From NCBI RefSeq assembly GCF_036885605.1, contig NZ_CP142523.1, positions 496,001 to 560,000 on the forward strand: a stretch of DNA of 64,000 nucleotides, in the 5' to 3' direction. A program made the position numbers and the translations under genes. A model generated the notes under the pieces. The model saw nothing but the letters and a program-made list of their open reading frames with translations. It did no database searches and was not told where the DNA came from. Origin of the DNA: Janthinobacterium sp. TB1-E2 (GTDB lineage Bacteria > Pseudomonadota > Gammaproteobacteria > Burkholderiales > Burkholderiaceae_D). Below, in pieces: positions 5,182 to 30,211 of the stretch (within the stretch, counting starts at the first letter, position 1; the number at the start of each line of letters is the position of its first letter).

Positions 5182-5212
5182 ACGCCGTGTAATCTGGCAC
5201 AAACTGCGGACG

Positions 5213-9971: not shown

Positions 9972-10038
9972 GATATCAATATTGATATCGAAACAGTGGA
10001 AAAATTGATTGGAGAGATTATCGCCCAGCCCCTAAGAT
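9972..10038 (+). promoter_or_regulatory. Operator and promoter of arabinose unit 1 (TonB receptor operon)
   Basis: GATATC-AATATT-GATATC (9972-9989) is a perfect 18-base palindrome. Nineteen bases later comes TTGGAG (10009-10014, within AAAATTGATTGGA), then an 18-base spacer and TAAGAT (10033-10038). The same three elements with the same spacing recur at 16357 and 24447, so I read them as operator, -35 and -10 of one regulon. The operator centre lies about 65 bases before the predicted transcript start, the usual position of a LysR-type activator site. Confidence 0.8.
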
Positions 10039-10103
10039 AAACGCCGAGCATGCGAACGACATGCAAGCGATACAAAAAATATCAATACAATATCTGGAGA
10101 TTC

Positions 10104-12761
10104 ATGATGCGCAATGCCACCGGTCCGCTCGCGGCCACTTCCCCTCGTCCATTCACCTTGAAGGCAGCCGTTGCGGCACTGGCCGGTATTGGCTTGCTGA
10201 GCACGGCTTCGGTGTGGGCGCAGGATGCGGTGGCGGCCGATGCCAGTGCCGAGCCGGCGGCGGAAGTGTCGGTCGTGACCGTCAGCGGCGTGCGCCGCTC
10301 GGCGCAGAATTCCCAGCAGATCAAGATGCGCTCGGACCAGGTCATCGATTCCATCGTGGCTGACGACATCGGCAAATTCCCCGATAACAACGTGGCTGAA
10401 ACCCTGGCGCGCATTTCCGGTATCCAGATCCGCCGCGATTCGGGCGAGGCGAGCGCCGTCATGATCCGCGGCTTGCGCGATGTCACGACCCTCCTCAACG
10501 GCCGCGAACTGTTCACCACCACGGGCCGCTATGTCAACCTGGCCGACATTCCCGCCACGATGCTGCAGCGCGTTGACGTGTACAAATCGCAGGGCGCGGA
10601 CCAGGTCGAAGGCGGCGTGGCCGGCATCATCGACGTGCGCACCAACCGCCCGTTCGATTTCAAGGACTTCACGGCCAGCGTGAATACGCGCGCCGTCTAC
10701 AGCGACAAATCCAAGGCCACCGACCCGAACATCAGCGGCATGCTGTCGAACCGCTGGAAGACGGGCATCGGCGAAGTGGGCGCGCTGCTGGGCTTGTCGC
10801 AGCAGCAGCACCGCTACCATGAAGAGCGCGCGTTCAATACGGCGCCTGTGGATAAAAGTTTCCTGTCACCGGGTTTGACGGGGCCGGACCAGGTGGGCTT
10901 GCTGCCGATCAAGGGCGACCGTCGTCGCACGACCGCCAATGCCGTGCTGCAATGGCGGCCGAACGCCGACGTCGAGCTGTACGCGGAAGGCATGGCCACG
11001 CGCTTCCTGCTCGATGCCGAGTCCGATTACTTTGTCGGCTTGCCGTGGTGGGGCACGCCCGTGTCGGCTACAAAAATTCCTGGCACCAACCAGCTGCAAA
11101 CGCTCACGTCCACCAACGTCAACACCATCATGTCGACGCAGGCGAACAAGAACGAGACGAAGACGCATCAATTTGCCGTGGGCGGCTTGTGGGATATCAA
11201 CCCGGAATGGCGTTTCACGTCGGAAGTGGCCAGCACCAAAAGCACCTATGCCTGGCGCAACCCGATTCTCGACGCGATTACCGTCGTGCCGAATGCCCGC
11301 ATCAATACCAACCAGAACGGCACCTTGCACGTGGACTACACGGGCAGCGATTTGCAAGACCCGTCGAACTACTATCTGAAGGGTTTCTTCGACCGCTACG
11401 GCAAGGACCAGGGCAGCTCGAACGACGTGCGCGCCGACCTGGCGTACACGCCGAGCGCGGGCGGCATCTTCAAGGAAATCAGCGTCGGCCTGCGCGGCGT
11501 GAAGCGCGAAGCCGAATCGATCAAGAGTTTCGAGGGCAATGCGGAAGCACCGGACGTGTCCGGCGCCGCGTTTCCGTTCGGCCGCCAGAGTGTGACGTCG
11601 ATTCCGGGCCTCAATTGTCTGTCGGAACCGATGTCCAGCGGCGGCCCCGACTATGGCTTGAAGCAGTGGTACACGCCGTGCGCCAGCTTCCTGCTCAATA
11701 ACACGGGCACCATCCGCGAAGCCGTCACGGGCAGCAGCGCGGCGCGCGCCATGGACCCGGGTTCGTTCTTCAAGGATACGGAAAAGACGTACTCGATCTA
11801 TACCAAGGCCAAGGTTGCCTTCAAGCTGGGCGCCTATCCCGTCGATGGCACCCTGGGCGTGCGCGTCGTGCGCACCGAACAAAGCCTGCAAGGCAACAGT
11901 TCGCAAGATGGCGTCTACACGCCTGTCATCAGCGATACGGCCAGCACCGACGTGCTGCCGAGCGTGGCCCTGAAAATCAAGCTGCGCTCGGATCTGGTCG
12001 GCCGCTTCGCTGCCGGCCGCACCATCAGCCGTCCCGGTTTTTCCCAGTTGAACCCGGGCGTGGCCCTGGTCAACTCGACGGAAACGGTGAAGGCGACGGG
12101 CGCGGGCGGCAATCCGAATCTGAAACCAGTCACGGGCGACAATGTTGACGCGGCACTGGAATGGTATTTCGCGCCCGCCGGTTCCGTCACGGCTACCGTG
12201 TTCCACCACAAGTTCGACGGTTATATCCAGCAACGCATTTCCAGCGAAACCATCGCCGGCAAGACCTATGACGTGGACCGCCCGTACAACACGGCCGCCG
12301 GCAAGCTGCAAGGCCTGGAAATTGGCTACCAGCAGTTTTATGACGGCTTGCCTGGCCTGTTGAGCGGCCTGGGCTTGCAAGCGAACGGTACCTACATGAG
12401 CGGCACTACCGATGACGAGACGGGCAGCCATGCCATCACGGGCGTGTCGCGCTATGCCTACAACCTGGTGCTGCTGTACGAAAAAGACGCGTGGTCGGGC
12501 CGCCTGGCTTACAACTGGCGCTCGAAATTCATCGACAGCTACAACCAGGGCGGCCCCGGCCTGGACTTGAAAGTGGCGCCGACGGCCCAGCTTGACGGTT
12601 CGCTGTCGTACAAGATCAACGACCAGTTCACCGTGACCCTCGATGGGAATAACTTGCTCGACACCAAGTTCAAGGATTACTGGAACACTGCGGGCGTGTA
12701 TCCGCGCGACACGCGCCGCTATGACCGCACAGTGGGTCTTTCTTTACGCTGGAAAATGTAA
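10104..12761 (+). CDS. TonB-dependent outer-membrane receptor (oligosaccharide uptake type)
   Basis: An 885-residue outer-membrane transporter. It has a signal peptide ending near residue 40 (SVWAQ), a plug domain (DSIVADDIGKFPDNNVAETL, then GIQIRRD...VMIRGLRD) and a long beta-barrel ending in an aromatic/hydrophobic strand (SLRWKM). This subtype is common in sugar-scavenging Proteobacteria. The start is ATG 10104 (or 10107) behind GGAGATTC; the frame is open further upstream but would run back into the promoter. As first gene of the arabinose locus it probably brings arabino-oligosaccharides into the periplasm. The energy-coupling TonB-ExbBD system is not in the window. Confidence 0.92.
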   Translation: MMRNATGPLAATSPRPFTLKAAVAALAGIGLLSTASVWAQDAVAADASAEPAAEVSVVTVSGVRRSAQNSQQIKMRSDQVIDSIVADDIGKFPDNNVAETLARISGIQIRRDSGEASAVMIRGLRDVTTLLNGRELFTTTGRYVNLADIPATMLQRVDVYKSQGADQVEGGVAGIIDVRTNRPFDFKDFTASVNTRAVYSDKSKATDPNISGMLSNRWKTGIGEVGALLGLSQQQHRYHEERAFNTAPVDKSFLSPGLTGPDQVGLLPIKGDRRRTTANAVLQWRPNADVELYAEGMATRFLLDAESDYFVGLPWWGTPVSATKIPGTNQLQTLTSTNVNTIMSTQANKNETKTHQFAVGGLWDINPEWRFTSEVASTKSTYAWRNPILDAITVVPNARINTNQNGTLHVDYTGSDLQDPSNYYLKGFFDRYGKDQGSSNDVRADLAYTPSAGGIFKEISVGLRGVKREAESIKSFEGNAEAPDVSGAAFPFGRQSVTSIPGLNCLSEPMSSGGPDYGLKQWYTPCASFLLNNTGTIREAVTGSSAARAMDPGSFFKDTEKTYSIYTKAKVAFKLGAYPVDGTLGVRVVRTEQSLQGNSSQDGVYTPVISDTASTDVLPSVALKIKLRSDLVGRFAAGRTISRPGFSQLNPGVALVNSTETVKATGAGGNPNLKPVTGDNVDAALEWYFAPAGSVTATVFHHKFDGYIQQRISSETIAGKTYDVDRPYNTAAGKLQGLEIGYQQFYDGLPGLLSGLGLQANGTYMSGTTDDETGSHAITGVSRYAYNLVLLYEKDAWSGRLAYNWRSKFIDSYNQGGPGLDLKVAPTAQLDGSLSYKINDQFTVTLDGNNLLDTKFKDYWNTAGVYPRDTRRYDRTVGLSLRWKM

Positions 12762-12785
12762 CTTGGTCGCACAGTAAAAAATCAA

Positions 12786-12817
12786 GGGCGTTGCCATGGT
12801 TTCGGCCGGCAACGCCC
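12786..12817 (+). other. Intercistronic hairpin
   Basis: GGGCGTTGCC (12786-12795) pairs with GGCAACGCCC (12808-12817) across a 12-base loop, with no T run. It sits between the receptor and symporter genes, where such hairpins often protect upstream mRNA or lower expression of the next gene. Confidence 0.6.
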
Positions 12818-12870
12818 CTGTCAGTTGGGCAGTCACGCACGATTCATCATAAAAAGAATGGACGGAAAGC

Positions 12871-14223: not shown

Positions 14224-14248
14224 GCAATAACTGAACGGAGTAAATAAC

Positions 14249-15196: not shown

Positions 15197-15213
15197 AACC
15201 TGGACCCGACGCC

Positions 15214-16284: not shown

Positions 16285-16309
16285 TCGTTGCAGACCCCAA
16301 AAACCTTTC

Positions 16310-16342
16310 ACGCCCTGCCGCCACGCGCGCGCAGGGCGTTTT
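16310..16342 (+). terminator. Terminator of arabinose unit 1
   Basis: ACGCCCTGC (16310-16318) pairs with GCAGGGCGT (16331-16339), followed by TTTT. It ends the receptor-to-mutarotase operon just before the promoter of unit 2. Confidence 0.7.
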
Positions 16343-16356
16343 CATTGGTGCTGATG

Positions 16357-16423
16357 GATATCGTTTTCGATATCGGAACGCATTAAAAATTGATTGGAAA
16401 GGCATGGCAGGATTCTTTAGTAT
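16357..16423 (+). promoter_or_regulatory. Operator and promoter of arabinose unit 2 (catabolic operon)
   Basis: GATATC-GTTTTC-GATATC (16357-16374), then 19 bases, TTGGAA (16394-16399, within AAAATTGATTGGA), an 18-base spacer, and TAGTAT (16418-16423). Element order and spacing are identical to those at 9972 and 24447. Confidence 0.82.
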
Positions 16424-16484
16424 TCCAACATCGCTGCCCGGGCCGACGACATTAGATCCGGCATGGCACAACCAGGAGAATGGC

Positions 16485-18227
16485 ATGTCTGAGACAAAAA
16501 AGAAGGTTGCCCTGCGCTCTGCCGAGTGGTTCGGCTCGCAGGACAAGAACGGCTTCATGTACCGCAGCTGGATGAAAAACCAGGGCATACCTGACCACGA
16601 GTTTCACGGCAAGCCCATCATCGGCATCTGCAATACCTGGTCCGAACTGACCCCTTGCAACGCGCATTTCCGCCAATTGGCCGAGCACGTCAAGCGCGGC
16701 ATCCTGGAAGCGGGCGGTTTCCCAGTGGAATTCCCTGTCTTCTCGAATGGCGAATCGAATTTGCGCCCGACGGCCATGCTGACGCGCAACCTGGCGTCGA
16801 TGGACGTGGAAGAATCGATCCGCGGCAATCCGATGGACGCCGTCGTGCTGCTGGTCGGCTGCGACAAGACGACGCCGGCGCTGCTGATGGGTGCGGCCAG
16901 CGTCGACATTCCGACCATCGTCGTCAGCGGCGGCCCCATGCTGAACGGCAAACTCAATGGCAAGGACATCGGTTCCGGCACGGCCGTATGGCAGTTGCAC
17001 GAGCAGATGAAGGCGGGATCGATCACCTTGCACCAGTTCATGTCGGCCGAATCGGGCATGTCGCGCTCGGCCGGTACCTGCAACACCATGGGCACGGCTT
17101 CGACGATGGCCAGCATGGCGGAAGCGCTGGGCACGTCCCTGCCGCACAACGCCGCAATCCCCGCCGTCGATTCGCGCCGCTACGTGCTGGCCCACATGTC
17201 GGGCATCCGCATCGTCGAAATGGTGCACGAAGACCTGCGCCTGTCGAAAGTGCTGACGCGCGAAGCGTTTGAAAACGCCATCAAGGTCAACGCCGCCATC
17301 GGTGGCTCGACCAATGCCGTGATCCACCTGAAAGCGATTGCCGGCCGCATCGGCGTGCCTTTGGAGCTGGAAGACTGGACCAAGGTAGGCCGCGGCACGC
17401 CGACCATCGTCGACTTGCTGCCGTCGGGTCGTTTCCTGATGGAAGAGTTTTATTATGCGGGCGGCTTGCCGGCCGTCATCCGCCGCCTGGGCGAGGGCGA
17501 TCTGCTGCCGCACAAGAATGCGCTGACCGTCAACGGCAAGTCGCTGTGGGACAACTGCGTTGAAGCGCCGATCTACAACGATGAAGTGGTGCGCACCTTG
17601 GACAACCCATTGCTGGCCGATGGCGGCATTTGCGTGTTGCGCGGCAATCTGGCGCCACGCGGCGCCGTGTTGAAACCGTCGGCCGCTTCGCCACACCTGA
17701 TGCAGCACCGCGGCAAGGCCGTCGTGTTCGAGGACTTTGAACATTACAAGGCCCGCATCGTTGATCCGGATCTGGATGTGGACGCGAACTCCGTGCTGGT
17801 CATGAAGAACTGCGGCCCGAAAGGCTATCCTGGCATGGCGGAAGTGGGCAACATGGGCTTGCCGCCGAAACTGCTGGCGCAAGGCATCACCGACATGGTG
17901 CGTATCTCGGATGCGCGCATGAGCGGCACAGCCTACGGTACCGTCGTCCTGCACGTGGCGCCGGAAGCGATGGCCGGCGGCCCGCTGGGCATCGTGCGCG
18001 ACGGCGACATGATCGCCCTCGACTGCCACAACGGCAGCCTGAACATCGACATCAGCGATGCGGAAATCGCCGAGCGCCTGGCGGCCCGCGAACTGGGCAG
18101 CGCTCCCGGACCGAAGAGCGGCTACCAGCAGCTGTACATCGAACACGTGTTGCAGGCCGATGAAGGCTGCGATTTCGACTTCCTGGTCGGCAATCGCGGT
18201 TCCGCCGTGCCACGTCACTCACACTAA
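16485..18227 (+). CDS. L-arabinonate dehydratase (IlvD/Edd family)
   Basis: 580 residues. It should dehydrate L-arabinonate to 2-keto-3-deoxy-L-arabinonate in the oxidative arabinose pathway. The three cysteines expected to hold the [2Fe-2S] cluster are C58 (TPCNA), C126 (VGCDKTT) and C199 (AGTCNTM); as I recall, this is one residue off the numbering of the Rhizobium enzyme. The family signature GCDKTTPALLMG is intact. The start at ATG 16485 follows AGGAGAATGGC. D-xylonate dehydratases are close relatives, so the substrate is assigned from the arabinan context. In Azospirillum this step is called AraC, a name I avoid because of the regulator. Confidence 0.87.
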   Translation: MSETKKKVALRSAEWFGSQDKNGFMYRSWMKNQGIPDHEFHGKPIIGICNTWSELTPCNAHFRQLAEHVKRGILEAGGFPVEFPVFSNGESNLRPTAMLTRNLASMDVEESIRGNPMDAVVLLVGCDKTTPALLMGAASVDIPTIVVSGGPMLNGKLNGKDIGSGTAVWQLHEQMKAGSITLHQFMSAESGMSRSAGTCNTMGTASTMASMAEALGTSLPHNAAIPAVDSRRYVLAHMSGIRIVEMVHEDLRLSKVLTREAFENAIKVNAAIGGSTNAVIHLKAIAGRIGVPLELEDWTKVGRGTPTIVDLLPSGRFLMEEFYYAGGLPAVIRRLGEGDLLPHKNALTVNGKSLWDNCVEAPIYNDEVVRTLDNPLLADGGICVLRGNLAPRGAVLKPSAASPHLMQHRGKAVVFEDFEHYKARIVDPDLDVDANSVLVMKNCGPKGYPGMAEVGNMGLPPKLLAQGITDMVRISDARMSGTAYGTVVLHVAPEAMAGGPLGIVRDGDMIALDCHNGSLNIDISDAEIAERLAARELGSAPGPKSGYQQLYIEHVLQADEGCDFDFLVGNRGSAVPRHSH

Positions 18228-18239
18228 GCGGAGAATCCC

Positions 18240-19232
18240 ATGCTGTTGCTGCAATTTACGAATGAACACGGCGGGCGCCTCGTCGGCCTGCTGCAAGACG
18301 ACGCCATCCGCGTCATCGAAGGCTACAACACGACGTATGCGCTGGCGCAAGACGCCATCCGCAAAAAGGTGAGCCTGGCGGATCTGGTCAACGCCACGGT
18401 CGGCAACACCACGCATTCCTATGCGGACGTGGCCGCTGCCGGACGTGTGCTGGCGCCGCTCGACCACGCCGATGAAGCGCACTGCTACGTGACGGGCACG
18501 GGTCTGACCCACCTGGGCAGCGCCGGCGCGCGCGACGCCATGCACAAGAAGATCGGCGGCGACGCGGAATCCTTGAGCGACTCGATGAAAATGTTCCGCC
18601 TGGGCGTGGAAGGCGGCAAGCCGGCTGACGGCACGGCCGGCGCCCAGCCCGAATGGTTCTATAAAGGCGACGGCTCCATCGTGCGCGCCGGCGGCCAGCC
18701 GCTGCGCATGCCGGACTTTGCCCTCGATGGCGGCGAAGAGCCGGAAATCGCCGGCCTGTACGTGATCGGCGACGACGGCCAGCCCTACCGGGTCGGCTAC
18801 GCCATCGGCAATGAATTCTCGGACCACGTGACGGAGCGCCAGAACTATCTGTACCTGGCCCACTCGAAGTTGCGAGCCTGCAGCGTGGGCCCGGCCCTGC
18901 TGGTGGGCGAATTGCCCGCGCATATCGCCGGTACTTCGCGTGTGCTTGATGCGGCTGGCAATGTACGCTGGGAAAAAGCGTTCGTCAGCGGCGAAGAGAA
19001 TATGTCGCACACGATCGCCAACCTGGAACACCATCACTTCAAGTACCCGCTGTTCAAGCGCCCTGGCGACGTGCACGTACACTTCTTTGGCACGGCAACG
19101 TTAAGCTTTGCCGATGGCGTGAGCGTGGCGCCTGGCGAAACCTTTGAAATCGAAGCGCCGGCCTTTGGCCCTGCCTTGCGCAACCGCCTCGATGTCTTCC
19201 CAACCGAATTTGCGAAAGTGAGCACATTATGA
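18240..19232 (+). CDS. araD1: 2-keto-3-deoxy-L-arabinonate dehydratase, FAH family (AraD1/GguC-like)
   Basis: 330 residues of the fumarylacetoacetate-hydrolase fold, of the GguC branch. Genetic work on this branch (Price and colleagues) tied it to dehydration of 2-keto-3-deoxy-L-arabinonate to 2-oxoglutarate semialdehyde. Segments typical of the branch are [14 protein letters not shown] near residue 82 and [21 protein letters not shown] near residue 200. It replaces the DHDPS-type AraD used by other species. It lies 12 bases after the dehydratase and overlaps the next gene by 4 bases (ATGA), so the three consecutive pathway enzymes are coupled. Confidence 0.88.
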
Positions 19233-20806
19233 GTTTCAATATCACCGGTGATGCATTGATTGGCGGCGTCGCCGTCAAGGGTAACGGCGGCTCTTTCGAA
19301 GCGTGGGACCCGGCCGCGCGCGCGCACATCGCGCCTGCTTTCCACATGGTCGACGCCGCGCAAATCGACGCGGCGTGCCGTCTGGCCCAAGCCGCGTTCG
19401 ATCCGTTCCGCGCCACCAGCGATGCGGAACGCGCCGATTTTCTCGACACCATCGCCGCGCAAATCCTCGAGCTGGGCGACGACCTGATCGTGCGCGCCAT
19501 GACGGAAAGCGGCTTGCCGCGCGCGCGCCTGGAAGGCGAACGTGGCCGCACGGTGGGTCAGCTGAAATTGTTCGCCGGCTTGCTGCGCGAGGGTTCATGG
19601 ACCGATGCACGCATCGACAGCCCGCTGCCTGACCGCGTGCCGCCGCGTCCTGACTTGCGTTTGCGCATGATCGGCCTGGGCCCCGTCGCCGTGTTCGCGG
19701 CCAGTAACTTCCCGCTGGCCTTCTCGGTGGCTGGCGGCGATACGGCCTCGGCCCTGGCTGCCGGCTGCCCCGTCGTCCTGAAAGCCCACTCGGCCCATCC
19801 GGGCACGTCGGAGCTGGTGGCGCGCGCGATCGTGAACGCGATTGCCATCTGCAAGCTGCCAGCCGGCGTGTTCGCCTTGCTGACGGGCACGGGCAATGGC
19901 ATCGGCCAGACCCTGGTGGCCCATCCTGCCATCCAGGCTGTCGGCTTTACGGGTTCGCGTTCGGGCGGCATCGCCCTGATGAAGGTGGCGGCCGAACGTG
20001 CGCAACCGATACCCGTATATGCTGAAATGAGCAGCATCAACCCTGTCTTCGTGTTGCCGCAAGCGCTGGCAGCCCGTGGCGCGGCGATCGCCAGCGGCTT
20101 TGCTGCCTCGCTGACCATGGGCGTGGGCCAGTTCTGCACCAATCCCGGCCTCGTGCTGGGCCTGGAAGGCCCTGACTTTACGGCGTTTGCCGCCGCTGCC
20201 GCCGAAGCGCTGGCGCCGGCGCCTGCCGCCACCATGTTGACGGCTGGCATCGCCAGCAGCTATGCCAAGGGCGTCGCCGCCCTGGCGCAGCATGCCGACG
20301 TGACGCCGCTGGTGCAAAACACGGGCGACGAAGGCAAGGGCGCCGCCGCCCTGTTCGTCACTTCGGGCGAAGCGTTTTTGGCCAAGCATGACTTGCGCGA
20401 CGAAGTCTTCGGTCCCGCTTCCCTGCTGGTCGCTTGCCGCGACATCGAGCAATTGCTGGCGATTACGGAAAGCCTGGAAGGCCAGCTGACGGCCACCCTG
20501 CAAATCGATGCCGGCGACGTGGACGATGCGCGCCGTCTGCTGCCCGTGCTGGAACGCCGCGTGGGCCGCATCCTGGCCAACGGTTTCCCGACGGGCGTGG
20601 AAGTGTCGACGGCCATGGTGCACGGCGGCCCGTTCCCGGCCACGTCGGATGGCCGCAGCACCTCGGTCGGTACGGCAGCCATCAACCGCTTCCTGCGTCC
20701 CGTGTCCTACCAGAACCTGCCGCAAGACTTGCTGCCGGAGTCGCTGCGCGACGATAATCCGCTGGGGATCTGGCGTCGTCACGATGGCGTGCTGGGCAAA
20801 CTTTAA
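19229..20806 (+). CDS. 2-oxoglutarate semialdehyde dehydrogenase (aldehyde dehydrogenase, NADP+)
   Basis: 525 residues. It oxidises 2-oxoglutarate semialdehyde to 2-oxoglutarate, the last step that sends arabinose carbon into the TCA cycle. Catalytic residues are visible as C303 (GQFCTNPG) and E266 (AEMSSINP). The subfamily is the KGSA type used in pentose and hexarate pathways. It starts in the ATGA overlap with araD1 at 19229. No transit or signal sequence is seen, so it is cytoplasmic. Confidence 0.92.
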
Positions 20807-20840
20807 TCACAAAAAATAAAAATACACAGGCGGAGACAAG

Positions 20841-21608
20841 ATGAAGCAATTGGCGAAATATGGCAGCTTGCAGGGCAAGCGCGTGTTCATCACGGGTGGC
20901 GGCAGCGGCATCGGCGAATCCTTGGTGGCGGAATTTGCCGCCCAGGGCGCGCTGGTGGCGTTTGTCGATATCGCCGTGGAAGCGAGCGAGGCCCTGTGCC
21001 GCCGCCTGGCCGAAGCGGGCCTGACGGCGCCCATTTTTCGCCATTGCGACATCACGGATATTCCATCACTGCAAGCCATCATGGCCGAACTGGCCGACAA
21101 GCTGGGCGACTTCGATATCCTCGTCAACAATGCCGCCAACGACCAGCGCCACCAGGCGCAGGACGTCACCCTGGAATACTGGAACGAGCGCATTGCGATC
21201 AATCAACGTCCCATGTTCTTCACGTGCCAGGCCGTCTTCGAGGGCATGAAGCGCAAGGGCGGCGGTTCCATCATCAATGTCAGCTCGATTTCCTGGCACA
21301 TGAAGTCGGGCGGCTACCCTGTGTATGCCACCACCAAGGCCGCCGTCGTGGGCCTCACGCGGGGCCTGGCGCGCGACTTTGGCGCCCACAATATCCGCGT
21401 CAATACCGTCACACCGGGCTGGGTCATGACGCAGCGCCAGATCGACCTGTGGGTCGACGACGCGGCCGAAGTGGAAATCAAGAAAAGCCAATGCTTGCCC
21501 AGCAAGTTGATGCCACAGGACATCGCCGCCATGGTGCTGTTCCTCGCTTCCGATGACGGCGCGATGTGCTCCAGTCAGGAATTCATTGTGGATGCTGGCT
21601 GGGTCTAA
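20841..21608 (+). CDS. SDR-family sugar 1-dehydrogenase (L-arabinose/D-xylose type)
   Basis: 255 residues with the short-chain dehydrogenase pattern: TGGGSGIG nucleotide loop (18-25), NNA (96-98), S149 and Y162-x-x-x-K166. It resembles bacterial pentose 1-dehydrogenases of the SDR class and would form the arabinono-lactone that opens the pathway. The start at ATG 20841 follows AGGCGGAGACAAG. The lactonase that should follow is not encoded in the window, so lactone opening must be spontaneous or encoded elsewhere. Whether arabinose or xylose is preferred cannot be read from sequence. Confidence 0.85.
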   Translation: MKQLAKYGSLQGKRVFITGGGSGIGESLVAEFAAQGALVAFVDIAVEASEALCRRLAEAGLTAPIFRHCDITDIPSLQAIMAELADKLGDFDILVNNAANDQRHQAQDVTLEYWNERIAINQRPMFFTCQAVFEGMKRKGGGSIINVSSISWHMKSGGYPVYATTKAAVVGLTRGLARDFGAHNIRVNTVTPGWVMTQRQIDLWVDDAAEVEIKKSQCLPSKLMPQDIAAMVLFLASDDGAMCSSQEFIVDAGWV

Positions 21609-21766: not shown

Positions 21767-23317
21767 ATGAAACTCATCCATACCAGCATCGTGGCCCTCA
21801 GCTTGGCCATGGCCGCCGGCAGCACCTTTGCCGCGCCCGTCAAGGTCACCATCGACGTGGCCAAGCCCGGTGCCGTGATCAACAAGAACGTGTACGGCCA
21901 GTTCGCCGAGCACCTGGGCACGGGCATCTATGAAGGCATGTGGGTGGGACCGGAGTCTTCCATTCCGAATACCAAGGGCTGGCGCAACGACGTGCTGGGC
22001 GCGCTGAAACAGTTGCACGTGCCGCTGGTCCGCTGGCCAGGCGGTTGTTTTGCCGATGAATACCACTGGAAGGACGGCATCGGCGCGCGCGACAAGCGCC
22101 CGACCAAGGTCAACACCAACTGGGGCGGCGTGGAAGAATCGAACGCCGTCGGCACGCATGAATTCTTCGACCTGGCCGAGCTCCTGGGCGCGCAGACCTA
22201 TATCAACGGCAACCTCGGTTCCGGCACGCCGCAGGAAATGTCCGAATGGCTCGAATACATGACCTCGGACAGCAAGTCGACCCTGGCCGAGCTGCGCCGC
22301 AAGAATGGCCGTGCCCAGCCGTATAAAGTCGATTACTTTGGCATCGGCAATGAAGCCTGGGGTTGCGGCGGCAATATGCGCCCGCAGTACTATGCCGACC
22401 TGTACAAGCACTATCACACCTTCATGAAGACGCCGGAAAGCGCGCGCCCGAAATTCATCGCCAGCGGCGGCAATGACGACGACATCAGCTGGTCCAGCAC
22501 CCTGAGCCGCGAAATCAAGCCGAACATGATGGACGCCATCAGTTTCCATTACTACACGGTGCCGACCGGCGTATGGGAAAAGAAGGGCGCGGCCACGGGC
22601 TTTGGCGAAGATCAATGGATCTCGACCCTGAGCCGCACCTTGCGCATCGATAGCTTGATCAAGAACAATATCGCCGCCATCGACAAGAACGATCCCTCGA
22701 AAAAGACGGGCTTGTACGTCGATGAATGGGGCACCTGGTACGACGTGGAGCCTGGCACCAACACCGGTTTCCTGTTCCAGCAAAACAGCTTGCGCGACGC
22801 CCTCGTCGCGGCCTTGAACTTCAATATTTTCCACGCCCACGCGGACCGTGTGCGCATGACGAATATCGCGCAAATGGTCAACGTGCTGCAGGCGATGATC
22901 ATCACCGACAAGGACAAATATTTCCTCACGCCTACGTATCATGCGTTTGAAATGTACGTGCCGTTCCAGGATGCCACGTCCCTGCCGGTCGCCATCCAGG
23001 GCAATGGCAAGTACAGCTTGGGCAAGGTCAGCATTCCCGAAGTGAGCGCCTCGGCCGCGCGCGGCAAGGATGGCAAGGTGTATCTGTCGCTGGTCAACAC
23101 GAACCCACACAAGGCGGTCGACGTGAGCGTGGCATTGGCCGGCAAGCAAGTGGCCAGCGTGACGGGCCGCGTGCTGACCGCAGGCAAGATGGATGCCGTC
23201 AACAGCTTTGCGCAACCGCAAGCCGTGCAGCCGGTGGCGTTCAATGCCCAGGCGCAAGGCGGTAAGCTGACCGTGTCGGTGCCCGCCAAGGCCGTCGTGG
23301 TGGTGGCCGTCGACTAA
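21767..23317 (+). CDS. Secreted GH51 alpha-L-arabinofuranosidase
   Basis: 516 residues with a signal peptide of about 22 residues (ending GSTFAAP). GH51 acid/base E196 lies in GIGNEAWG and nucleophile E320 in YVDEWGTWY; the C-terminal part is the usual beta-sandwich. It removes terminal arabinofuranosyl units from arabinan or arabinoxylan outside the cytoplasm. Many GH51 enzymes are cytoplasmic, so the clear export signal is worth noting. The start at ATG 21767 follows AGGAGACAGC. The 158-base gap upstream has no copy of the operator, so it is probably read from unit 2. Confidence 0.92.
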   Translation: MKLIHTSIVALSLAMAAGSTFAAPVKVTIDVAKPGAVINKNVYGQFAEHLGTGIYEGMWVGPESSIPNTKGWRNDVLGALKQLHVPLVRWPGGCFADEYHWKDGIGARDKRPTKVNTNWGGVEESNAVGTHEFFDLAELLGAQTYINGNLGSGTPQEMSEWLEYMTSDSKSTLAELRRKNGRAQPYKVDYFGIGNEAWGCGGNMRPQYYADLYKHYHTFMKTPESARPKFIASGGNDDDISWSSTLSREIKPNMMDAISFHYYTVPTGVWEKKGAATGFGEDQWISTLSRTLRIDSLIKNNIAAIDKNDPSKKTGLYVDEWGTWYDVEPGTNTGFLFQQNSLRDALVAALNFNIFHAHADRVRMTNIAQMVNVLQAMIITDKDKYFLTPTYHAFEMYVPFQDATSLPVAIQGNGKYSLGKVSIPEVSASAARGKDGKVYLSLVNTNPHKAVDVSVALAGKQVASVTGRVLTAGKMDAVNSFAQPQAVQPVAFNAQAQGGKLTVSVPAKAVVVVAVD

Positions 23318-23343
23318 GCTGTCGCTCACCTGTCACTCATCAG

Positions 23344-23366
23344 GCCGGCCCGCATGACGGGCCGGC
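23344..23366 (+). other. Intercistronic hairpin between GH51 and GH43
   Basis: GCCGGCCCG (23344-23352) and CGGGCCGGC (23358-23366) make a perfect 9-bp GC stem with loop CATGA. Only a short imperfect T-containing stretch follows, so it may attenuate or stabilise the message, not end it fully. Confidence 0.6.
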
Positions 23367-23386
23367 TGACCATTTTGGAGAAGACG

Positions 23387-24421: not shown

Positions 24422-24446
24422 GTGGACCAGGGGATGGGCGACAGGT

Positions 24447-24513
24447 GATACGCAAATCGATATCACAAGCGAAAAAGAATTGATTGGATGGCTATGTTGC
24501 TTTCTCCTACCAT
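24447..24513 (+). promoter_or_regulatory. Operator and promoter of arabinose unit 3 (ABC importer operon)
   Basis: GATACG-CAAATC-GATATC (24447-24464, one half-site imperfect), then 19 bases, TTGGAT (24484-24489, within AATTGATTGGA), an 18-base spacer and TACCAT (24508-24513). It has the same architecture as the sites at 9972 and 16357. Confidence 0.8.
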
Positions 24514-24581
24514 GGGTTCATAAAAAACCGCCCATCCGGCATCCGGCTGTGATGGTATTCCAAAAAAAACTGGAGACAAGA

Positions 24582-25544
24582 ATGAAATTGACACGCCGCA
24601 CACTCCTCGCCAGCGCCATGTTGTTGGCACTGTCCGCTACTTCTTCCGCCTTTGCCGCCAAGCCCCTCGTCATGGGCTTTTCGCAGGTGGGCGCCGAAAG
24701 CGAATGGCGCACCGCCAATACCGTCTCCATCAAGGATGCGGCCAAGAAAGATGGCGTCACGCTGAAATTTGCTGATGCGCAGCAAAAACAGGAAAACCAG
24801 GTCAAGGCCCTGCGCTCGTTCATCGCGCAAAAAGTCGACGTGATCGCCTTCTCGCCGGTCGTTGAGTCCGGCTGGGATACGGTCCTGCGCGAAGCCAAGG
24901 CTGCCAAGATTCCCGTCATCCTGACGGACCGCGCCGTCAACGTCACCGACAAATCGCTGTACGTGACCTTCATCGGTTCCGATTTCGTGGAAGAGGGCCG
25001 CCGCGCTGGCCAATGGCTGCTCGAGCACGCCAAGAAAACCCCGGACGCGCAATTGAACATCGTCGAGCTGCAAGGCACGGTCGGCTCCGCGCCGGCCATC
25101 GACCGCAAGGAAGGCTTCCAGGAAGTCATCGGCAAGAATCCAAAGCTGAAAATCATCCGTTCGCAAACGGGCGACTTTACGCGCGCCAAGGGCAAGGAAG
25201 TGATGGAAGCGTTCCTGAAGGCCGAAGGCAAGAAGATCAACGTGCTGTACGCGCACAATGACGACATGGCCATCGGCGCCATCCAGGCCATCGAAGAAGC
25301 GGGCATGAAACCGGGCAAGGACATCATCATCATCTCGATCGATGGCGTCAAAGGCGCGTTCGAAGCCATGATCGCCGGCAAGCTGAACGTCACCGTGGAA
25401 TGCAGCCCGCTGCTGGGCCCGCAATTGATGTCGATCGCCCGCGACGTGGTGGCCGGCAAGCCCGTGCCAGCGCGCATCACGACGGTGGAAGGCGTGTTCC
25501 CTGCCGAGGTGGCCGCCAAGGAATTCCCGAACCGTAAGTATTAA
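24582..25544 (+). CDS. ytfQ: Sugar ABC transporter substrate-binding protein (YtfQ-like)
   Basis: 320 residues; signal peptide of about 25 residues (TSSAFAA) and a periplasmic-binding type 1 fold. It closely follows E. coli YtfQ in segments such as GFSQVGAESEWR, FADAQQKQENQ, NIVELQGTVGSAPAIDR and YAHNDDMAIGAIQAIEEAG. YtfQ binds galactofuranose; the fold and this locus make L-arabinose (probably furanose form) the likely ligand here. ATG 24582 follows TGGAGACAAGA. It is the first gene of a four-part importer in the usual order. Confidence 0.9.
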   Translation: MKLTRRTLLASAMLLALSATSSAFAAKPLVMGFSQVGAESEWRTANTVSIKDAAKKDGVTLKFADAQQKQENQVKALRSFIAQKVDVIAFSPVVESGWDTVLREAKAAKIPVILTDRAVNVTDKSLYVTFIGSDFVEEGRRAGQWLLEHAKKTPDAQLNIVELQGTVGSAPAIDRKEGFQEVIGKNPKLKIIRSQTGDFTRAKGKEVMEAFLKAEGKKINVLYAHNDDMAIGAIQAIEEAGMKPGKDIIIISIDGVKGAFEAMIAGKLNVTVECSPLLGPQLMSIARDVVAGKPVPARITTVEGVFPAEVAAKEFPNRKY

Positions 25545-25553
25545 GCTTGCCGC

Positions 25554-27095
25554 ATGATGAATACGCAAGCGCAACACAACGCCGCGCCAGCTCCCTTGCT
25601 GGAGTTGCGCGGCATCAGCAAGTCTTTTCCTGGCGTCAAAGCCCTCAGCGACGTTGCCCTGCGCCTGTATCCGGGTGAAGTGCACACCTTGATGGGGCAG
25701 AACGGCGCCGGGAAATCGACGCTGATCAAGGTGCTGACGGGCGTCTACACGCCCGACAGCGGCCAGATTCTGTTTGACGGCAAGCCCATCGCGCCCGCGT
25801 CCACCTCGGATGCGCAGTTGCTCGGCATCAGCACCGTGTACCAGGAAGTCAATCTGTGCCCGAACCTGTCGGTGGCGGAAAACATCTTTATTGGCCGCTA
25901 CCCGCGCCGCTTCGGCGCCATCGACTGGCGTTCCATGCAGCAGCAGGCGCGTGCCTTGCTGCAGCAGTTGCAGATCGATATCGATGTCACGGCGCAACTG
26001 TCCAGCTTTCCGCTGGCGATCCAGCAAATGGTGGCCATTTCGCGCGCACTGAACATTTCGGCTCGCGTGCTGATCCTCGATGAACCCACGTCCAGCCTCG
26101 ACGAGGCTGAAGTCAATCTGCTGTTTTCCGTGCTGCGCCGCCTGCGCGAGCAAGGCATGGCGATTCTGTTTGTGACCCACTTCCTCGACCAGACCTACGC
26201 CATTTCCGACCGCATCACCGTCATGCGCAATGGCGAGCGCGAGGGCGAATATGCATGCAGCGAACTGTCGCGCCTGGCGCTGGTCAATAAAATGATCGGT
26301 GTGGCTGCCGACACGCAGGAGCAAACGCCGGACCTGGCGCAAGAAGCGGGCGCCGCCAGCTTCGGTCCGACTGTGCTCGAAGCGCAGGGACTCGGCCGCA
26401 AGGGTGCCCTGCTGCCCATGGATTTCCACATCCGCCAGGGCGAATTGCTGGGCCTGGCCGGCTTGCTCGGTTCGGGCCGCACGGAACTGGCGCGTTTGCT
26501 GTTCGGCGCCGACAAGGCCGATTCCGGCAGCATCGTCATGCAGGGCAAGATACGCCAGTTCAACGTGCCGCGCGACGCGATCGCCCAGGACATCGGTTTC
26601 TGCTCGGAAGACCGCAAGCACGAGGGCGCGATTTTGTCGCTGTCCGTGCGCGAAAACATCATATTGGCCTTGCAGGCCCGCACGGGCTTGCTGCGCGCCA
26701 TCCCGTTCAAACGCCAGCAGGCGCTGGCCGACGAGTACGTGAAGGCACTGGGCATCAAGACGGCCAGCATCGAAACGCCGATTGGCAGCCTGTCGGGCGG
26801 CAATCAGCAGAAAGCCTTGCTGGCGCGCTGGCTGGTGACGTCGCCGGCCATGCTGATTCTCGATGAACCGACGCGCGGCATCGACGTGCGCGCCAAGCAG
26901 GAAATCATGAGTTATGTGAGCAAGCTGTGCCGCAAGGGCATGGCCATCCTGTTCATCTCGTCGGAGCTGCCGGAAGTGCTGCGCTGCAGCGACCGTATTC
27001 TCGTCATGCGCGACCGCAAGGCCTGCGGCGACTATGCGCGCGGCGAGCTCGACGACAGCTCCGTGCTGCAAGTGATCGCCGGAGACGCCACATGA
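25554..27095 (+). CDS. ytfR: Sugar ABC transporter ATP-binding protein (YtfR-like, two cassettes)
   Basis: 513 residues with two ABC domains. The first has Walker A GQNGAGKST and a degenerate signature (FPLAIQQMVA); the second has signature LSGGNQQK and Walker B LILDEPTRGID. This asymmetry is normal for the carbohydrate-uptake class 2 family. It powers import of the sugar delivered by the YtfQ-like protein 9 bases upstream. Two ATGs lie in a row at 25554 and 25557 without a strong ribosome site. It overlaps the permease gene by 4 bases. Confidence 0.93.
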   Translation: MMNTQAQHNAAPAPLLELRGISKSFPGVKALSDVALRLYPGEVHTLMGQNGAGKSTLIKVLTGVYTPDSGQILFDGKPIAPASTSDAQLLGISTVYQEVNLCPNLSVAENIFIGRYPRRFGAIDWRSMQQQARALLQQLQIDIDVTAQLSSFPLAIQQMVAISRALNISARVLILDEPTSSLDEAEVNLLFSVLRRLREQGMAILFVTHFLDQTYAISDRITVMRNGEREGEYACSELSRLALVNKMIGVAADTQEQTPDLAQEAGAASFGPTVLEAQGLGRKGALLPMDFHIRQGELLGLAGLLGSGRTELARLLFGADKADSGSIVMQGKIRQFNVPRDAIAQDIGFCSEDRKHEGAILSLSVRENIILALQARTGLLRAIPFKRQQALADEYVKALGIKTASIETPIGSLSGGNQQKALLARWLVTSPAMLILDEPTRGIDVRAKQEIMSYVSKLCRKGMAILFISSELPEVLRCSDRILVMRDRKACGDYARGELDDSSVLQVIAGDAT

Positions 27096-28174
27096 GTTTA
27101 TCCACGCCATCGAACGCGCCCCTGGCGCGTCCGGCTTCCACTACGGGTACGTCCGCCTTGCATACCGTTCTGCACCACCCCTTGAGCCGGCCCCTGGCCG
27201 CGCTGTTGCTGCTGTTGCTGGTGGCCTTCTTTGCCATCCCCGGCTTTTTCCACCTGGAAGTGCGCGACGGCCACTTGTACGGCAGCGTGATCGACATCGT
27301 CAACCGTGCCGCCCCGCTGATGCTGGCGGCCCTGGGCATGACCCTGGTCATCGCCACGCGCGGCATCGATATTTCCGTGGGCGCCGTCGTGGCCCTGTCC
27401 GGTACCGTGGCCGCCATGCTGATCGGCGGCACCATGGTGATGGACAACGGCGTGCCGACCTACGTGAGCAACATCCCCATGGGCTGGGCCCTGGCGGCCG
27501 CCTTGGGCGCGGCCCTGCTGTGCGGCGCCTGGAATGGCGTGCTGGTGGCGGGACTCGGCTTGCAACCCATCGTCGCGACATTGATACTGATGGTGGCGGG
27601 GCGTGGCCTGGCGCAATTGCTGACGGATGGGCAGATCGTCACCGTCTATTATCAACCGTTCTTTTTCATCGGCAGCGGCTACCTGTTTGGCTTGCCGTTT
27701 TCCCTGTTCCTCGTCGCTGCCGTGTTCATTATTACGGCCGTGCTGATGCGCAAGACGGCCCTGGGCCTGTTTATCCAGGCCGTCGGCATCAACCCCGTCG
27801 CCGCGCGCCTGGCCGGCATCAAGACGGCGACGCTGATCTTTTTCGTCTACGTGTTTTGCGCCGCCTGCGCGGGCCTGTCGGGTCTGATGATCAGCTCTAA
27901 CATCAAGAGCGCCGATGCGAACAATGCGGGCCTGATGCTGGAACTCGACGCCATCCTGGCCGTGACCTTGGGCGGTACGTCCTTGGCTGGCGGCAAGTTC
28001 AGTCTCGTGGGCAGCATGATAGGCGCCCTCATCATCCAGACCCTGACCTACACGATCTATTCGCTGGGCGTGCCGCCGGAAGTGAACATGGTCGTCAAGT
28101 CGGTCGTCGTCTTCCTCGTCTGCCTGTCGCAATCGTCGGAATTCAAGCAATTGCTGCATCGGAGAAAAGCATGA
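27092..28174 (+). CDS. ytfT: Sugar ABC transporter permease (YtfT-like)
   Basis: 360 residues, about ten hydrophobic segments, of the RbsC/BPD_transp_2 family. The conserved stretch GMTLVIATRGIDISVGAVVAL lies in the first third. It starts in the ATGA overlap with the ATPase gene at 27092 after GGAGACGCC and ends in another ATGA overlap with the second permease. The frame is open 55 codons upstream, but that overlaps the ATPase. With its partner it forms the heterodimeric membrane channel of the arabinose importer. Confidence 0.91.
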   Translation: MSLSTPSNAPLARPASTTGTSALHTVLHHPLSRPLAALLLLLLVAFFAIPGFFHLEVRDGHLYGSVIDIVNRAAPLMLAALGMTLVIATRGIDISVGAVVALSGTVAAMLIGGTMVMDNGVPTYVSNIPMGWALAAALGAALLCGAWNGVLVAGLGLQPIVATLILMVAGRGLAQLLTDGQIVTVYYQPFFFIGSGYLFGLPFSLFLVAAVFIITAVLMRKTALGLFIQAVGINPVAARLAGIKTATLIFFVYVFCAACAGLSGLMISSNIKSADANNAGLMLELDAILAVTLGGTSLAGGKFSLVGSMIGALIIQTLTYTIYSLGVPPEVNMVVKSVVVFLVCLSQSSEFKQLLHRRKA

Positions 28175-29145
28175 AGGGCTTGCTGCATACCCCGTATTTC
28201 ACCTCGCTCGTCACGGTCCTGCTGCTGGTGGTGATGCTGGGCCTCGGCGGCGCCGCCTATCCGGGCCTGCTGTCGACGCAAGTGATCTTTAACCTGTTGA
28301 TCGATAACGCCTTTTTGCTGGTGATCGCCGTCGGCATGACCTTCGTCATCGTTTCCGGCGGCATCGATCTGTCCGTCGGTTCCGTGCTGGCCCTGTCGAC
28401 CATGATCGCCGCCTGGCTGCTCAACGTGGCGCACTGGCCGCCGCTCTTGGTGATCGTCACGGTGCTGGCACTGGGCACCGTGTTTGGCGCCAGCATGGGC
28501 GCGCTGATTCATTACTTCAAATTGCAGCCCTTCATCGTCACCCTGGCCGGCATGTTTCTGGCGCGCGGGCTGTGCTACTTGATCAGCATCAATTCCATCA
28601 CCATCGACGACCCGTTGTTCGTGGCCATGTCGCAGACGCAATTGCAATTTCTCGGCGGTTTTGTCTCACCCGGCGTCGTGATCGCCGTGATCACGTTGCT
28701 CTTGGCCATCTGGCTGGCGCACGCCACGCCGTTCGGCCGCGCCGTGTATGCGATCGGCGGCAATGAACAGTCGGCCCTGATGATGGGGCTGCCCGTGGGC
28801 CGCACCAAGGTCTTTATCTATGCCTTCAGCGGCTTTTGCGCTGCGCTCGGCGGCGTGCTGTTTTCGTTCTACATGCTGTCCGGCTATGGCTTGCATGCGC
28901 AAGGCACGGAACTGGACGCGATTGCCGCCGTCGTCATCGGCGGCACCCTGCTCAGCGGCGGCTATGGCTATGTGGCGGGCGCGCTGTCGGGCGTGCTGGT
29001 GCTGGGCACCATCCAGACCCTGATCGCCTTCGACGGCACGCTCAGCTCATGGTGGACCAAGATCGTCATCGGTGGCTTGCTATTCGTCTTTTGCGTCGTG
29101 CAAAGACTGATGGCCATGGGCCAGAAGAATACCTATCGGAGTTAA
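28171..29145 (+). CDS. yjfF: Sugar ABC transporter permease (YjfF-like)
   Basis: 324 residues, the second RbsC-type permease, with [19 protein letters not shown] in the first third and GGTLLSGGYGYVAGAL near the end. Start ATG 28171 overlaps the first permease stop by 4 bases. Having two unequal permease genes is the hallmark of the YtfRT-YjfF subgroup, unlike the homodimeric ribose system seen at 44253. Confidence 0.91.
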   Translation: MKGLLHTPYFTSLVTVLLLVVMLGLGGAAYPGLLSTQVIFNLLIDNAFLLVIAVGMTFVIVSGGIDLSVGSVLALSTMIAAWLLNVAHWPPLLVIVTVLALGTVFGASMGALIHYFKLQPFIVTLAGMFLARGLCYLISINSITIDDPLFVAMSQTQLQFLGGFVSPGVVIAVITLLLAIWLAHATPFGRAVYAIGGNEQSALMMGLPVGRTKVFIYAFSGFCAALGGVLFSFYMLSGYGLHAQGTELDAIAAVVIGGTLLSGGYGYVAGALSGVLVLGTIQTLIAFDGTLSSWWTKIVIGGLLFVFCVVQRLMAMGQKNTYRS

Positions 29146-29149
29146 TACC

Positions 29150-30124
29150 ATGTTTCACAAGATAAAACTTGCCGCAGCCATCGGCATGGCGGCGGCGCTC
29201 GCCTGCGCCCCATTCGTCGCACAGGCAGCCAACCCCATCGTCAAGGATATCTACACGGGCGACCCGGCCGCGCTGGTCGACAATGGCAGGGTCTACCTGT
29301 ACGTGGGCCACGATGAAGCGAGCGCCACGGATACGGATTACCGCATGAACGAGTGGCGCGTGTATTCCTCGTGCGACATGGCGAACTGGACGGATCACGG
29401 CTCGCCCGTGCGCTTTTCCACCTTCGCGTGGGCCGGCAAGGATGCCTGGGCCGGTGACATCGTCAAGCGCGGCAATAAATATTATTTCTATTCGACCGTC
29501 GACCATAAAACCATTCCCGGCAAAGCCATCGGTGTGGCCGTCTCCGACAGCCCGACCGGGCCGTTCGTCGATGCGCGCGGCAGCGCCCTGATCACCAACG
29601 ACATGACGAAGCAGACGGCCATTCCCTGGGACGATATCGACCCGGCCGTCTTTATCGACACGGATGGGCAGGCCTACATTTACTGGGGTAACACGGTCTT
29701 GAAATACGCCAAGCTGAAAGCCAATATGACGGAGCTGGACGGCCCGATTCTGACCTTCGGCATGGATGCGTTCACGGAAGCGGCCTATATGCACAAGCAT
29801 GCCGGTACGTATTACTTGTCGTACTCGCGCAATTTCCCGGAAGAGACGGCGTATTCGACGGGCCCGACGCCGACGGGGCCCTGGCATTTCCGCGGCACCA
29901 TCATGGACAAGAATGCCGTCGTGAAAACCATTCACCAGGCCATCATCGAGTTCAATGGCAAGTCCTACATCTTCTATCACAACGACAAGTTGCCCGGCGG
30001 CGGAGAATACCGGCGTTCCGTGGCCGTGGAAGAGCTGAAATACAAGCCGGACGGCACCATCGAATTCATCCAGCAAACGGCTGGCCCGGCCGCCAACCCG
30101 AGCGCCGCCTGCAAGGCATTGTGA
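29150..30124 (+). CDS. Secreted GH43 family glycoside hydrolase
   Basis: 324 residues with a signal peptide of about 26 residues (FVAQAANPI). The GH43 base is D38 in IYTGDPAAL; WDDIDPAVF and FTEAAYMHKH supply the other two acids. The branch is closer to exo-acting arabinofuranosidase/beta-xylosidase enzymes than to the endo-arabinanase at 23387. It starts 4 bases after the permease stop, behind CGGAGTTAATACC, so it belongs to the importer operon. Together with the GH51 and the first secreted GH43 it gives the locus three exported arabinan-active enzymes. Confidence 0.85.
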   Translation: MFHKIKLAAAIGMAAALACAPFVAQAANPIVKDIYTGDPAALVDNGRVYLYVGHDEASATDTDYRMNEWRVYSSCDMANWTDHGSPVRFSTFAWAGKDAWAGDIVKRGNKYYFYSTVDHKTIPGKAIGVAVSDSPTGPFVDARGSALITNDMTKQTAIPWDDIDPAVFIDTDGQAYIYWGNTVLKYAKLKANMTELDGPILTFGMDAFTEAAYMHKHAGTYYLSYSRNFPEETAYSTGPTPTGPWHFRGTIMDKNAVVKTIHQAIIEFNGKSYIFYHNDKLPGGGEYRRSVAVEELKYKPDGTIEFIQQTAGPAANPSAACKAL

Positions 30125-30159
30125 ACGCTTGTTGACCAAGTATAAAAAGGAGACATACC

Positions 30160-30211
30160 GATATCTATAACATCGATATTGAATTAAAACTGATATCGAT
30201 CATGATATGAT
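30160..30211 (+). promoter_or_regulatory. Operator cluster and -10 box at the LysR gene start
   Basis: Two operator-like pairs lie just before the LysR start codon: GATATC-N9-GATATT (30160-30180) and GATATC-GATCAT-GATATG (30192-30209). A TATGAT box at 30206-30211 overlaps the second pair and stands only 6 bases before the ATG at 30218, which would give an almost leaderless message. A regulator bound here would block its own promoter. Confidence 0.68.

What the first reader, a model, noticed from the sequence alone, without database searches (positions are those of the whole stretch)
9972..30211. A shared operator-promoter module controls the whole arabinan/arabinose locus
Three promoters carry the same composite element: GATATC-N6-GATATC (one half-site GATACG at 24447), then exactly 19 bases, TTGGAN inside ATTGATTGGA, then exactly 18 bases, then TANNAT (9972-10038, 16357-16423, 24447-24513). 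The first two operators are exact in all twelve half-site bases. The operator centre is about 65 bases upstream of the predicted start, where LysR-type activators bind. Two related sites lie on the start of the LysR gene at 30218. The even-length dyad is unlike the textbook T-N11-A LysR box, so the binding mode could be unusual.
Basis: partly seen in the sequence, partly recalled or inferred. Interest (0 to 1): 0.82.

Follow-up and report, generated by a model that had tools for sequence, protein, structure and literature searches.

The report
Shared switch for arabinose and galactose genes
Three operons for plant arabinose carry the same regulatory DNA element, which most likely is the docking and promoter site of the neighbouring LysR-type regulator; the kind of switch is known, but its DNA code and its reach (galactose genes too) are worked out here by comparing genomes.

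Summary
The composite lies at 9972-10038, 16357-16423 and 24447-24513; a looser form occurs 3 times in the 6.31-Mb Janthinobacterium genome, all here. It is conserved with fixed spacing before the orthologous ABC operon (72 of 73 usable loci). A profile trained without Janthinobacterium finds in this genome the three sites plus a galactonate operon, chvE-gguAB, a GH43 gene and a second TonB receptor. In 145 genomes of the family the site tracks the LysR gene: 44 of 44 with it, 1 of 101 without. The geometry persists in Azospirillum beside chvE and a 40% identical LysR. Best reading: a GbpR-type LysR activator regulon for L-arabinose and D-galactose.

Two corrections. The even dyad is not odd: its core ATA-N10-TAT equals the mutation-tested PcaQ site (PMC5002191). 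ATTGATTGGA is probably part of a second LysR site over the -35, 32 bp from the first. The lysR gene carries the same array, reversed, over a promoter that looks leaderless. Binding, inducer and transcript starts are untested.

The parts
9972..9989 (+). Upstream LysR operator (recognition site) of the TonB-receptor operon, GATATCAATATTGATATC
   Evidence: R1 profile 38.5 bits, local match 9972-10018
10004..10014 (+). Conserved ATTGATTGGA box (10004-10013): likely part of a second LysR site overlapping the -35 (TTGGAG 10009-10014)
10033..10038 (+). Predicted -10 TAAGAT
   Evidence: inferred, start not mapped; the profile match ends before it
10104..12761 (+). TonB-dependent receptor
   Evidence: Pfam PF00593, PF07715
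12871..14223 (+). MFS sugar transporter
   Evidence: PF13347
14249..15196 (+). GH43 glycosidase
   Evidence: PF04616
15286..16284 (+). Aldose 1-epimerase (from the domain start; ORF open from 14917)
   Evidence: PF01263
16357..16374 (+). Upstream LysR operator of the non-phosphorylative arabinose operon, GATATCGTTTTCGATATC
   Evidence: R1 profile 49.5 bits
16389..16399 (+). ATTGATTGGA box (16389-16398), likely part of a second LysR site over the -35 (TTGGAA 16394-16399)
16418..16423 (+). Predicted -10 TAGTAT
   Evidence: inferred
16485..18227 (+). L-arabinonate dehydratase-like IlvD/EDD protein
   Evidence: NF009559 838 bits, cut-off 882; NF004784 above cut-off
18240..19232 (+). AraD1/GguC family protein
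   Evidence: NF040903 522 bits, cut-off 340
19229..20806 (+). Aldehyde dehydrogenase, probably the 2-oxoglutarate semialdehyde dehydrogenase
   Evidence: PF00171; role inferred
20841..21608 (+). SDR dehydrogenase, probably L-arabinose 1-dehydrogenase
   Evidence: PF13561; role inferred
21767..23317 (+). Alpha-L-arabinofuranosidase
   Evidence: PF06964
23354..24421 (+). GH43 glycosidase
   Evidence: PF04616
24447..24464 (+). Upstream LysR operator of the sugar ABC operon, GATACGCAAATCGATATC
   Evidence: R1 profile 48.5 bits
24479..24489 (+). ATTGATTGGA box (24479-24488), likely part of a second LysR site over the -35 (TTGGAT 24484-24489)
24508..24513 (+). Predicted -10 TACCAT
   Evidence: inferred
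24582..25544 (+). YtfQ-like sugar-binding protein of the ABC transporter
   Evidence: 395 bits, below cut-off 510
25554..29145 (+). ABC transporter ATPase and two permeases (YtfR/YtfT/YjfF-like)
29150..30124 (+). GH43 glycosidase
   Evidence: PF04616
30160..30180 (-). Two half-sites upstream of lysR (30160-30165 GATATC, 30175-30180 GATATT); the first lies in the register of the second LysR site, reversed
30192..30209 (-). LysR operator at its own gene, reversed relative to the catabolic promoters
   Evidence: (9.5 bits, weak)
30206..30211 (+). Predicted -10 TATGAT of lysR, 6 nt before the ATG, overlapping the operator (leaderless transcript)
   Evidence: TATNAT at this place in 58 of 78 loci; inferred
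30218..31159 (+). GbpR-type LysR regulator
   Evidence: PF00126, PF03466; 40% identical to the LysR beside chvE in Azospirillum

Best explanation
The composite is the two-site operator plus promoter of a GbpR-type LysR activator encoded at 30218. The regulator binds the upstream dyad (core ATA-N10-TAT, centre about -65 from the predicted start) tightly and an imperfect second site (T-N12-A with a right half-site GRTATC in relatives, 32 bp or about three helical turns downstream) that overlaps the weak -35. With sugar bound (L-arabinose or D-galactose, or a close derivative) the tetramer shifts and recruits RNA polymerase. This turns on arabinan-oligosaccharide uptake, the non-phosphorylative arabinose pathway, the ABC importer and, elsewhere, galactonate and chvE-gguAB operons. 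At lysR the same array lies reversed over the lysR promoter and represses it. Shown: sequence, spacing, conservation, genome-wide distribution, co-occurrence with the regulator. Inferred: binding, inducer, activation, autorepression, transcript starts.
For: Three exact composites, the only loose-form matches in the genome. Best composite before the orthologous ABC gene has at most 5 of 18 mismatches in 72 of 73 usable loci and at most 3 in 66; block shuffles give 0 of 1460 at 3 or fewer and 18 of 1460 at 5 or fewer. Present before the dehydratase in 24 of 30 fetched loci, 8 of the 30 from this genus. Profile R1, trained on 49 sites none labelled Janthinobacterium, finds seven places in this genome at E up to 0.06: three in the window, a galactonate operon, chvE-gguAB, a GH43 gene and a TonB receptor gene. 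Family survey: 44 of 44 genomes with the LysR have a site, 1 of 101 without. Same geometry before chvE, ytfQ and the lactonase gene in two Azospirillum loci whose LysR is 40% identical. lysR carries the reversed array. PcaQ, with the same core, activates its operon and represses its own gene (PMC5002191; PMC12285266 passage).
Against: No binding, expression or start-site data. In the window the third half-site is degenerate (GCTATG and GGCATG, 4 and 3 of 6 bases; one base off at site 1), so the second site rests on relatives. R1 was trained on the same family, partly on the surveyed genomes, so '44 of 44' is partly circular, and absence was scored with stricter filters on a limited number of candidates. 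Thirteen genomes have a dehydratase match but neither this LysR nor a site, but in 12 of them it is only 65-68% identical (one 83%), so this says little. Six of 30 dehydratase genes lack the composite directly upstream. The Halomonas locus (41% LysR) shows no composite and the Comamonadaceae one only a weak match. G022 has three sites but no LysR orthologue found. The lysR site scores only 9.5 bits. The second TonB receptor's substrate is unknown.
Confidence: 0.84

Rival explanations
1. The dyad belongs to another regulator (for example an AraC-, LacI- or GntR-type protein elsewhere in the genome) and the LysR is only a neighbour.
For: No binding data; a XylR/AraC-type regulator lies in the xylose cluster between the chvE and galactonate operons.
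Against: The site tracks the LysR gene over 145 genomes (44 of 44 against 1 of 101). The array also sits on the lysR promoter and between divergent lysR and catabolic genes in G010, Paraburkholderia and Azospirillum.
Confidence: 0.07
2. The LysR is mainly a repressor: it blocks the -35 until inducer frees the promoter.
For: The conserved box overlaps the -35; some LysR proteins repress (recalled).
Against: The -35 TTGGAN is poor (3 of 6 to the recalled consensus TTGACA) and the upstream dyad is conserved at fixed spacing far upstream of it, which fits activation; the PcaQ site with the same core serves activation (PMC5002191).
Confidence: 0.1
3. The composite is a promoter copied by recent duplication and has no shared regulator.
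For: Related operons can share promoters.
Against: Columns between the conserved blocks (20-27) vary between operons and species while the blocks stay, across genera and to Azospirillum.
Confidence: 0.03

Closest known systems
GbpR, the LysR-type regulator of chvE/sbpA in Agrobacterium and Azospirillum
   Same: LysR protein beside oxidative arabinose/galactose genes; this genome's chvE-gguAB operon carries the composite; two Azospirillum loci with a 40% identical LysR next to chvE carry it before chvE, ytfQ and the lactonase gene. A review says GbpR controls chvE in the presence of sugars (PMC4086400, passages).
   Different: Here the regulon also covers arabinan uptake by a TonB receptor, MFS transporter and GH43 enzymes. 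The inducer is untested. That the Azospirillum LysR is the published GbpR rests on its position beside chvE and on PMC4042000 passages naming GbpR with GguA and GguB; the records call it only a LysR family regulator.
PcaQ (LysR-type activator of protocatechuate genes)
   Same: Operator core ATA-N10-TAT, mutation-tested for PcaQ, centred 65.5 bp upstream of its target gene (PMC5002191 passages). TIGR02424 PcaQ is the best NCBIfam match of this LysR and of three relatives.
   Different: Score 183.8 against a cut-off of 303.8, so it is not PcaQ; sugar operons, not aromatic ones.
LysR 'AraR' predicted for Halomonas ara genes
   Same: LysR beside the oxidative arabinose genes, predicted by comparative genomics (PMC5507952, passages).
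   Different: Its motif is in a supplement I could not read; the Halomonas locus examined here (L222) shows no composite.

Membership tests
LysR-type transcriptional regulator with two-site activation promoter | HTH_1 and LysR_substrate domains | tested here: met
LysR-type transcriptional regulator with two-site activation promoter | Recognition dyad near -65 | tested here: met
   By sequence only: dyad centre about 53 bp before the predicted -10 at all three promoters; transcript start not mapped
LysR-type transcriptional regulator with two-site activation promoter | Second site toward the -35 | tested here: inconclusive
   Clear in the consensus of 63 sites (T-N12-A 32 bp downstream), degenerate in the window
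LysR-type transcriptional regulator with two-site activation promoter | Textbook T-N11-A box | tested here: not met
   Core is T-N12-A, ATA-N10-TAT; the same as the PcaQ site
LysR-type transcriptional regulator with two-site activation promoter | Inducer-dependent activation and autorepression | not testable with these tools
   needs expression and binding assays
GbpR | Controls chvE/sbpA with its transporter genes | tested here: inconclusive
   Composite before chvE-gguAB in this genome and before chvE in two Azospirillum loci; control itself untested
GbpR | Sequence relationship to the Azospirillum LysR beside chvE | tested here: met
   40% identity over the protein, conserved HTH residues
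GbpR | Responds to D-galactose, L-arabinose, D-fucose | not testable with these tools
   recalled property; the PMC4042000 passage ties these sugars to SbpA, not to the regulator
PcaQ | NCBIfam TIGR02424 above its cut-off | tested here: not met
   183.8 bits against 303.8
PcaQ | Operator ATA-N10-TAT | tested here: met

The most novel reading that the evidence does not exclude
One promoter grammar (ATA-N10-TAT, then a second T-N12-A site fused with the -35 in a fixed 32-bp register) has been kept from Alphaproteobacteria to Betaproteobacteria by GbpR-type regulators only 40% identical. In this lineage the reversed array at lysR is a relic of an ancestral divergent promoter, reused to repress a leaderless lysR transcript whose -10 it covers.
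Probability: 0.4. Interest if true: 0.5.

Novelty: new member of a known kind. Interest (0 to 1): 0.42.

Why it matters
It gives a concrete candidate operator for GbpR-type regulators and a predicted regulon that joins polymer uptake, arabinose oxidation and galactose use in Oxalobacteraceae. I found no description of that operator in the held library (paper searches; most subscription papers are not held, and the key PcaQ paper is not). It also shows that even-spaced LysR operators occur outside PcaQ, so motif searches limited to T-N11-A can miss them. The fixed spacing makes a compact, testable sugar-inducible promoter.

Tried and rejected
Rejected: 'unusual binding mode' (PcaQ precedent); 'GATATC dyad alone marks the regulon' (386 sites with up to 2 mismatches in the genome; the composite is needed); 'regulon limited to the window'; a member of PcaQ (below cut-off). 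The strict composite pattern missed the chvE and galactonate sites (TTGGT in place of TTGGA) and four genomes with a 73-75% LysR; the profile recovered them. The reversed-pattern control of the genome search is unfair for GATATC, since its reverse CTATAG has another composition, so I did not lean on it for the dyad alone.

Led nowhere: closest solved sequences are a TsaR-type regulator (E 1.3e-20) and an OxyR (E 1.3e-16), not used. A phylum scan at E 1e-70 found relatives of this LysR in 3 of 200 genomes, this genome included, with at most 11 candidates scored per genome. Papers seen as passages only: PMC4495286, PMC12285266, PMC6336799, PMC10107873, PMC3141670, PMC4042000, PMC4086400, PMC5507952, PMC5002191; the other papers of the searches were seen as listings with the start of the abstract.

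Rows dropped: of 74 loci with the SBP gene (of 80) L120 is not usable (gene cut by the contig end), leaving 73; the shuffle control still held L120 and left out L095 (short upstream). L106 and L122 were left out of the lysR start count (78 of 80). From 63 non-redundant composites, A1 used 49. The 14 left out were the three window sites, two Janthinobacterium sites (L075, L156), four with a shifted -10 (L084, L092, L094, L115) and five further rows (L127-L129, L131, L132) dropped by hand, without a fixed rule, to thin similar ones. The loci are the 30 that were fetched out of 55 genomes with a match.

Full report
What is there. The window lies at 496001-560000 of a 6.31-Mb chromosome. The loosened composite occurs three times in the genome, all here.

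Gene content. The first site precedes a TonB receptor, MFS transporter, GH43 and aldose epimerase; the second a dehydratase, AraD1/GguC protein, aldehyde dehydrogenase, SDR, arabinofuranosidase and GH43; the third a YtfQRT/YjfF-like ABC transporter and another GH43, followed by lysR. This fits arabinan/arabino-oligosaccharide uptake plus the non-phosphorylative arabinose pathway; single enzyme roles are inferred from families.

Conservation. Of 80 named loci around LysR relatives, 74 have the SBP gene and 73 are usable. The best fixed-spacing composite in the 260 bases before it has at most 3 of 18 mismatches in 66 and at most 5 in 72; the miss is Roseateles L122. Block shuffles of these upstream regions give 0 of 1460 at 3 or fewer and 18 of 1460 at 5 or fewer. 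Before the best-matching dehydratase it is present in 24 of 30 fetched loci (this genome and seven others of the genus among them; L163 is weak). The six without are L165, L166, L168, L169, L171 and L172, whose genomes carry sites elsewhere.

What the element is. Over 63 non-redundant sites the most conserved columns are not GATATC as such but ATA-N10-TAT (columns 2-4 and 15-17), an A-rich run (29-33), ATTGGA (37-42), T/C-A-T (47-49) and TA---T (62-67). Matching GATATC along the site gives a peak outside the first dyad at columns 45-50 (4.27 of 6; next 3.21 at column 41 and 3.06 at column 47), 32 bp from the right half of the first dyad. With T35 and A48 this is a second, imperfect site of the same T-N12-A type overlapping the -35. 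In the window that half-site is weak (GGCATG and GCTATG at promoters 2 and 3; at the first promoter GATTATC, one base off), so the second site is an inference from relatives.

The even dyad. [quoted passage not shown] That is the same core. PcaQ is also the best NCBIfam match of this LysR, though below its cut-off, and of three relatives. The even length therefore has a precedent in the nearest named family.

Regulon. A profile of 49 sites, none labelled Janthinobacterium, searched in this genome (150 of 771 first-look candidates scored) gives, in order: 512357 (2.1e-12), 520447 (4.7e-12), 505972 (5.9e-9), 411194 (1.2e-8), 401077 reverse (1.1e-5), 1566233 reverse (0.008), 5069088 (0.06), then 526140 reverse (6.9; lysR itself) and 6099737 (8.2, not examined). 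The fourth precedes a 2-keto-3-deoxygalactonokinase, an arabinonate-type dehydratase, an SMP-30 lactonase and a KDPG-type aldolase; the fifth precedes chvE-gguA-gguB. The sixth precedes a GH43 protein with ricin-type lectin domains, which I read as an endo-arabinanase; the seventh a TonB receptor of unknown substrate. E-values are rough by the tool's own note.

Regulator link. In the genus, 33 of 40 genomes have the LysR at 73% identity or more, and all 33 have three or more sites at E up to 0.1. Of the seven without it, five have none, G021 has one at 0.07 and G022 (83% complete) has three. In 145 genomes of the family 44 of 44 with the LysR (E up to 1e-100) have a site at E up to 0.001 and 1 of 101 without it does (G057). 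Thirteen genomes with a dehydratase match but no such LysR have none; in 12 of them the dehydratase is only 65-68% identical, in G132 83%, so this is weak support. The Fisher value 1e-36 ignores shared descent, some of these genomes supplied training sites, and one search used stricter filters.

Further relatives. In two Paraburkholderia and two Azospirillum records the composite lies beside the related LysR. In both Azospirillum loci it lies before chvE, ytfQ and the lactonase gene with 0 or 1 of 15 mismatches to the core; shuffles of those loci give none at 2 or fewer. The Comamonadaceae locus scores weakly (0.009) and fails the fixed-core scan; the Halomonas locus shows none.

At lysR. On the reverse strand the operator at 30209-30192 is followed, at columns 45-50, by GATATC (30165-30160): the register of the catabolic promoters, but facing away from lysR. 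Of 78 loci 49 keep the dyad with at most 2 mismatches, 46 of them at the same distance from the ATG; in 35 non-redundant ones half-site peaks fall at columns 30 (3.74) and 45 (4.06). In G010, two Paraburkholderia and two Azospirillum loci lysR is divergent from a catabolic operon with the composite between them, so the reversed array here looks like what remains of such an arrangement. TATNAT lies exactly 6 nt before the ATG in 58 of 78 loci, and the ATG at 30218 is the first start codon of its frame. This predicts a leaderless transcript with the operator over its -10, hence autorepression; PcaQ is reported to repress its own gene (PMC12285266, passage). None of this is measured here.

Verdict. 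A real, conserved operator-promoter module, most likely of a GbpR-type LysR activator for arabinose and galactose genes. The mechanism is of a known kind; the operator grammar, the predicted regulon and the lysR arrangement are the new parts.

Noticed in passing
window 770-5228: Two tandem related genes: direct repeats of 75-82% identity at a spacing of 2377 bases.
   Followed up: no
L201:1-20000 (G000:C1:396000-415999): A second sugar cluster about 95-105 kb upstream of the first window site: chvE-gguAB, D-xylose genes with a XylR/AraC-type regulator, and a galactonate operon, with two more composites.
   Followed up: partly
L210:1501-1541 and L211:1501-1541: Weak composites before a GH43-ricin-lectin gene and a TonB receptor gene outside the window.
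   Followed up: partly
G022 (genus survey): Three composites but no LysR orthologue found in an 83% complete assembly; perhaps an assembly gap, perhaps loss of the regulator.
   Followed up: no
G057:C168:4062-4104: The only genome of the family survey with a site but without the LysR at E up to 1e-100.
   Followed up: no
L218:17901-18335: The plasmid record lists a predicted VIM beta-lactamase over a gene annotated as a VOC family protein; I suspect a mislabel but did not test it.
   Followed up: no
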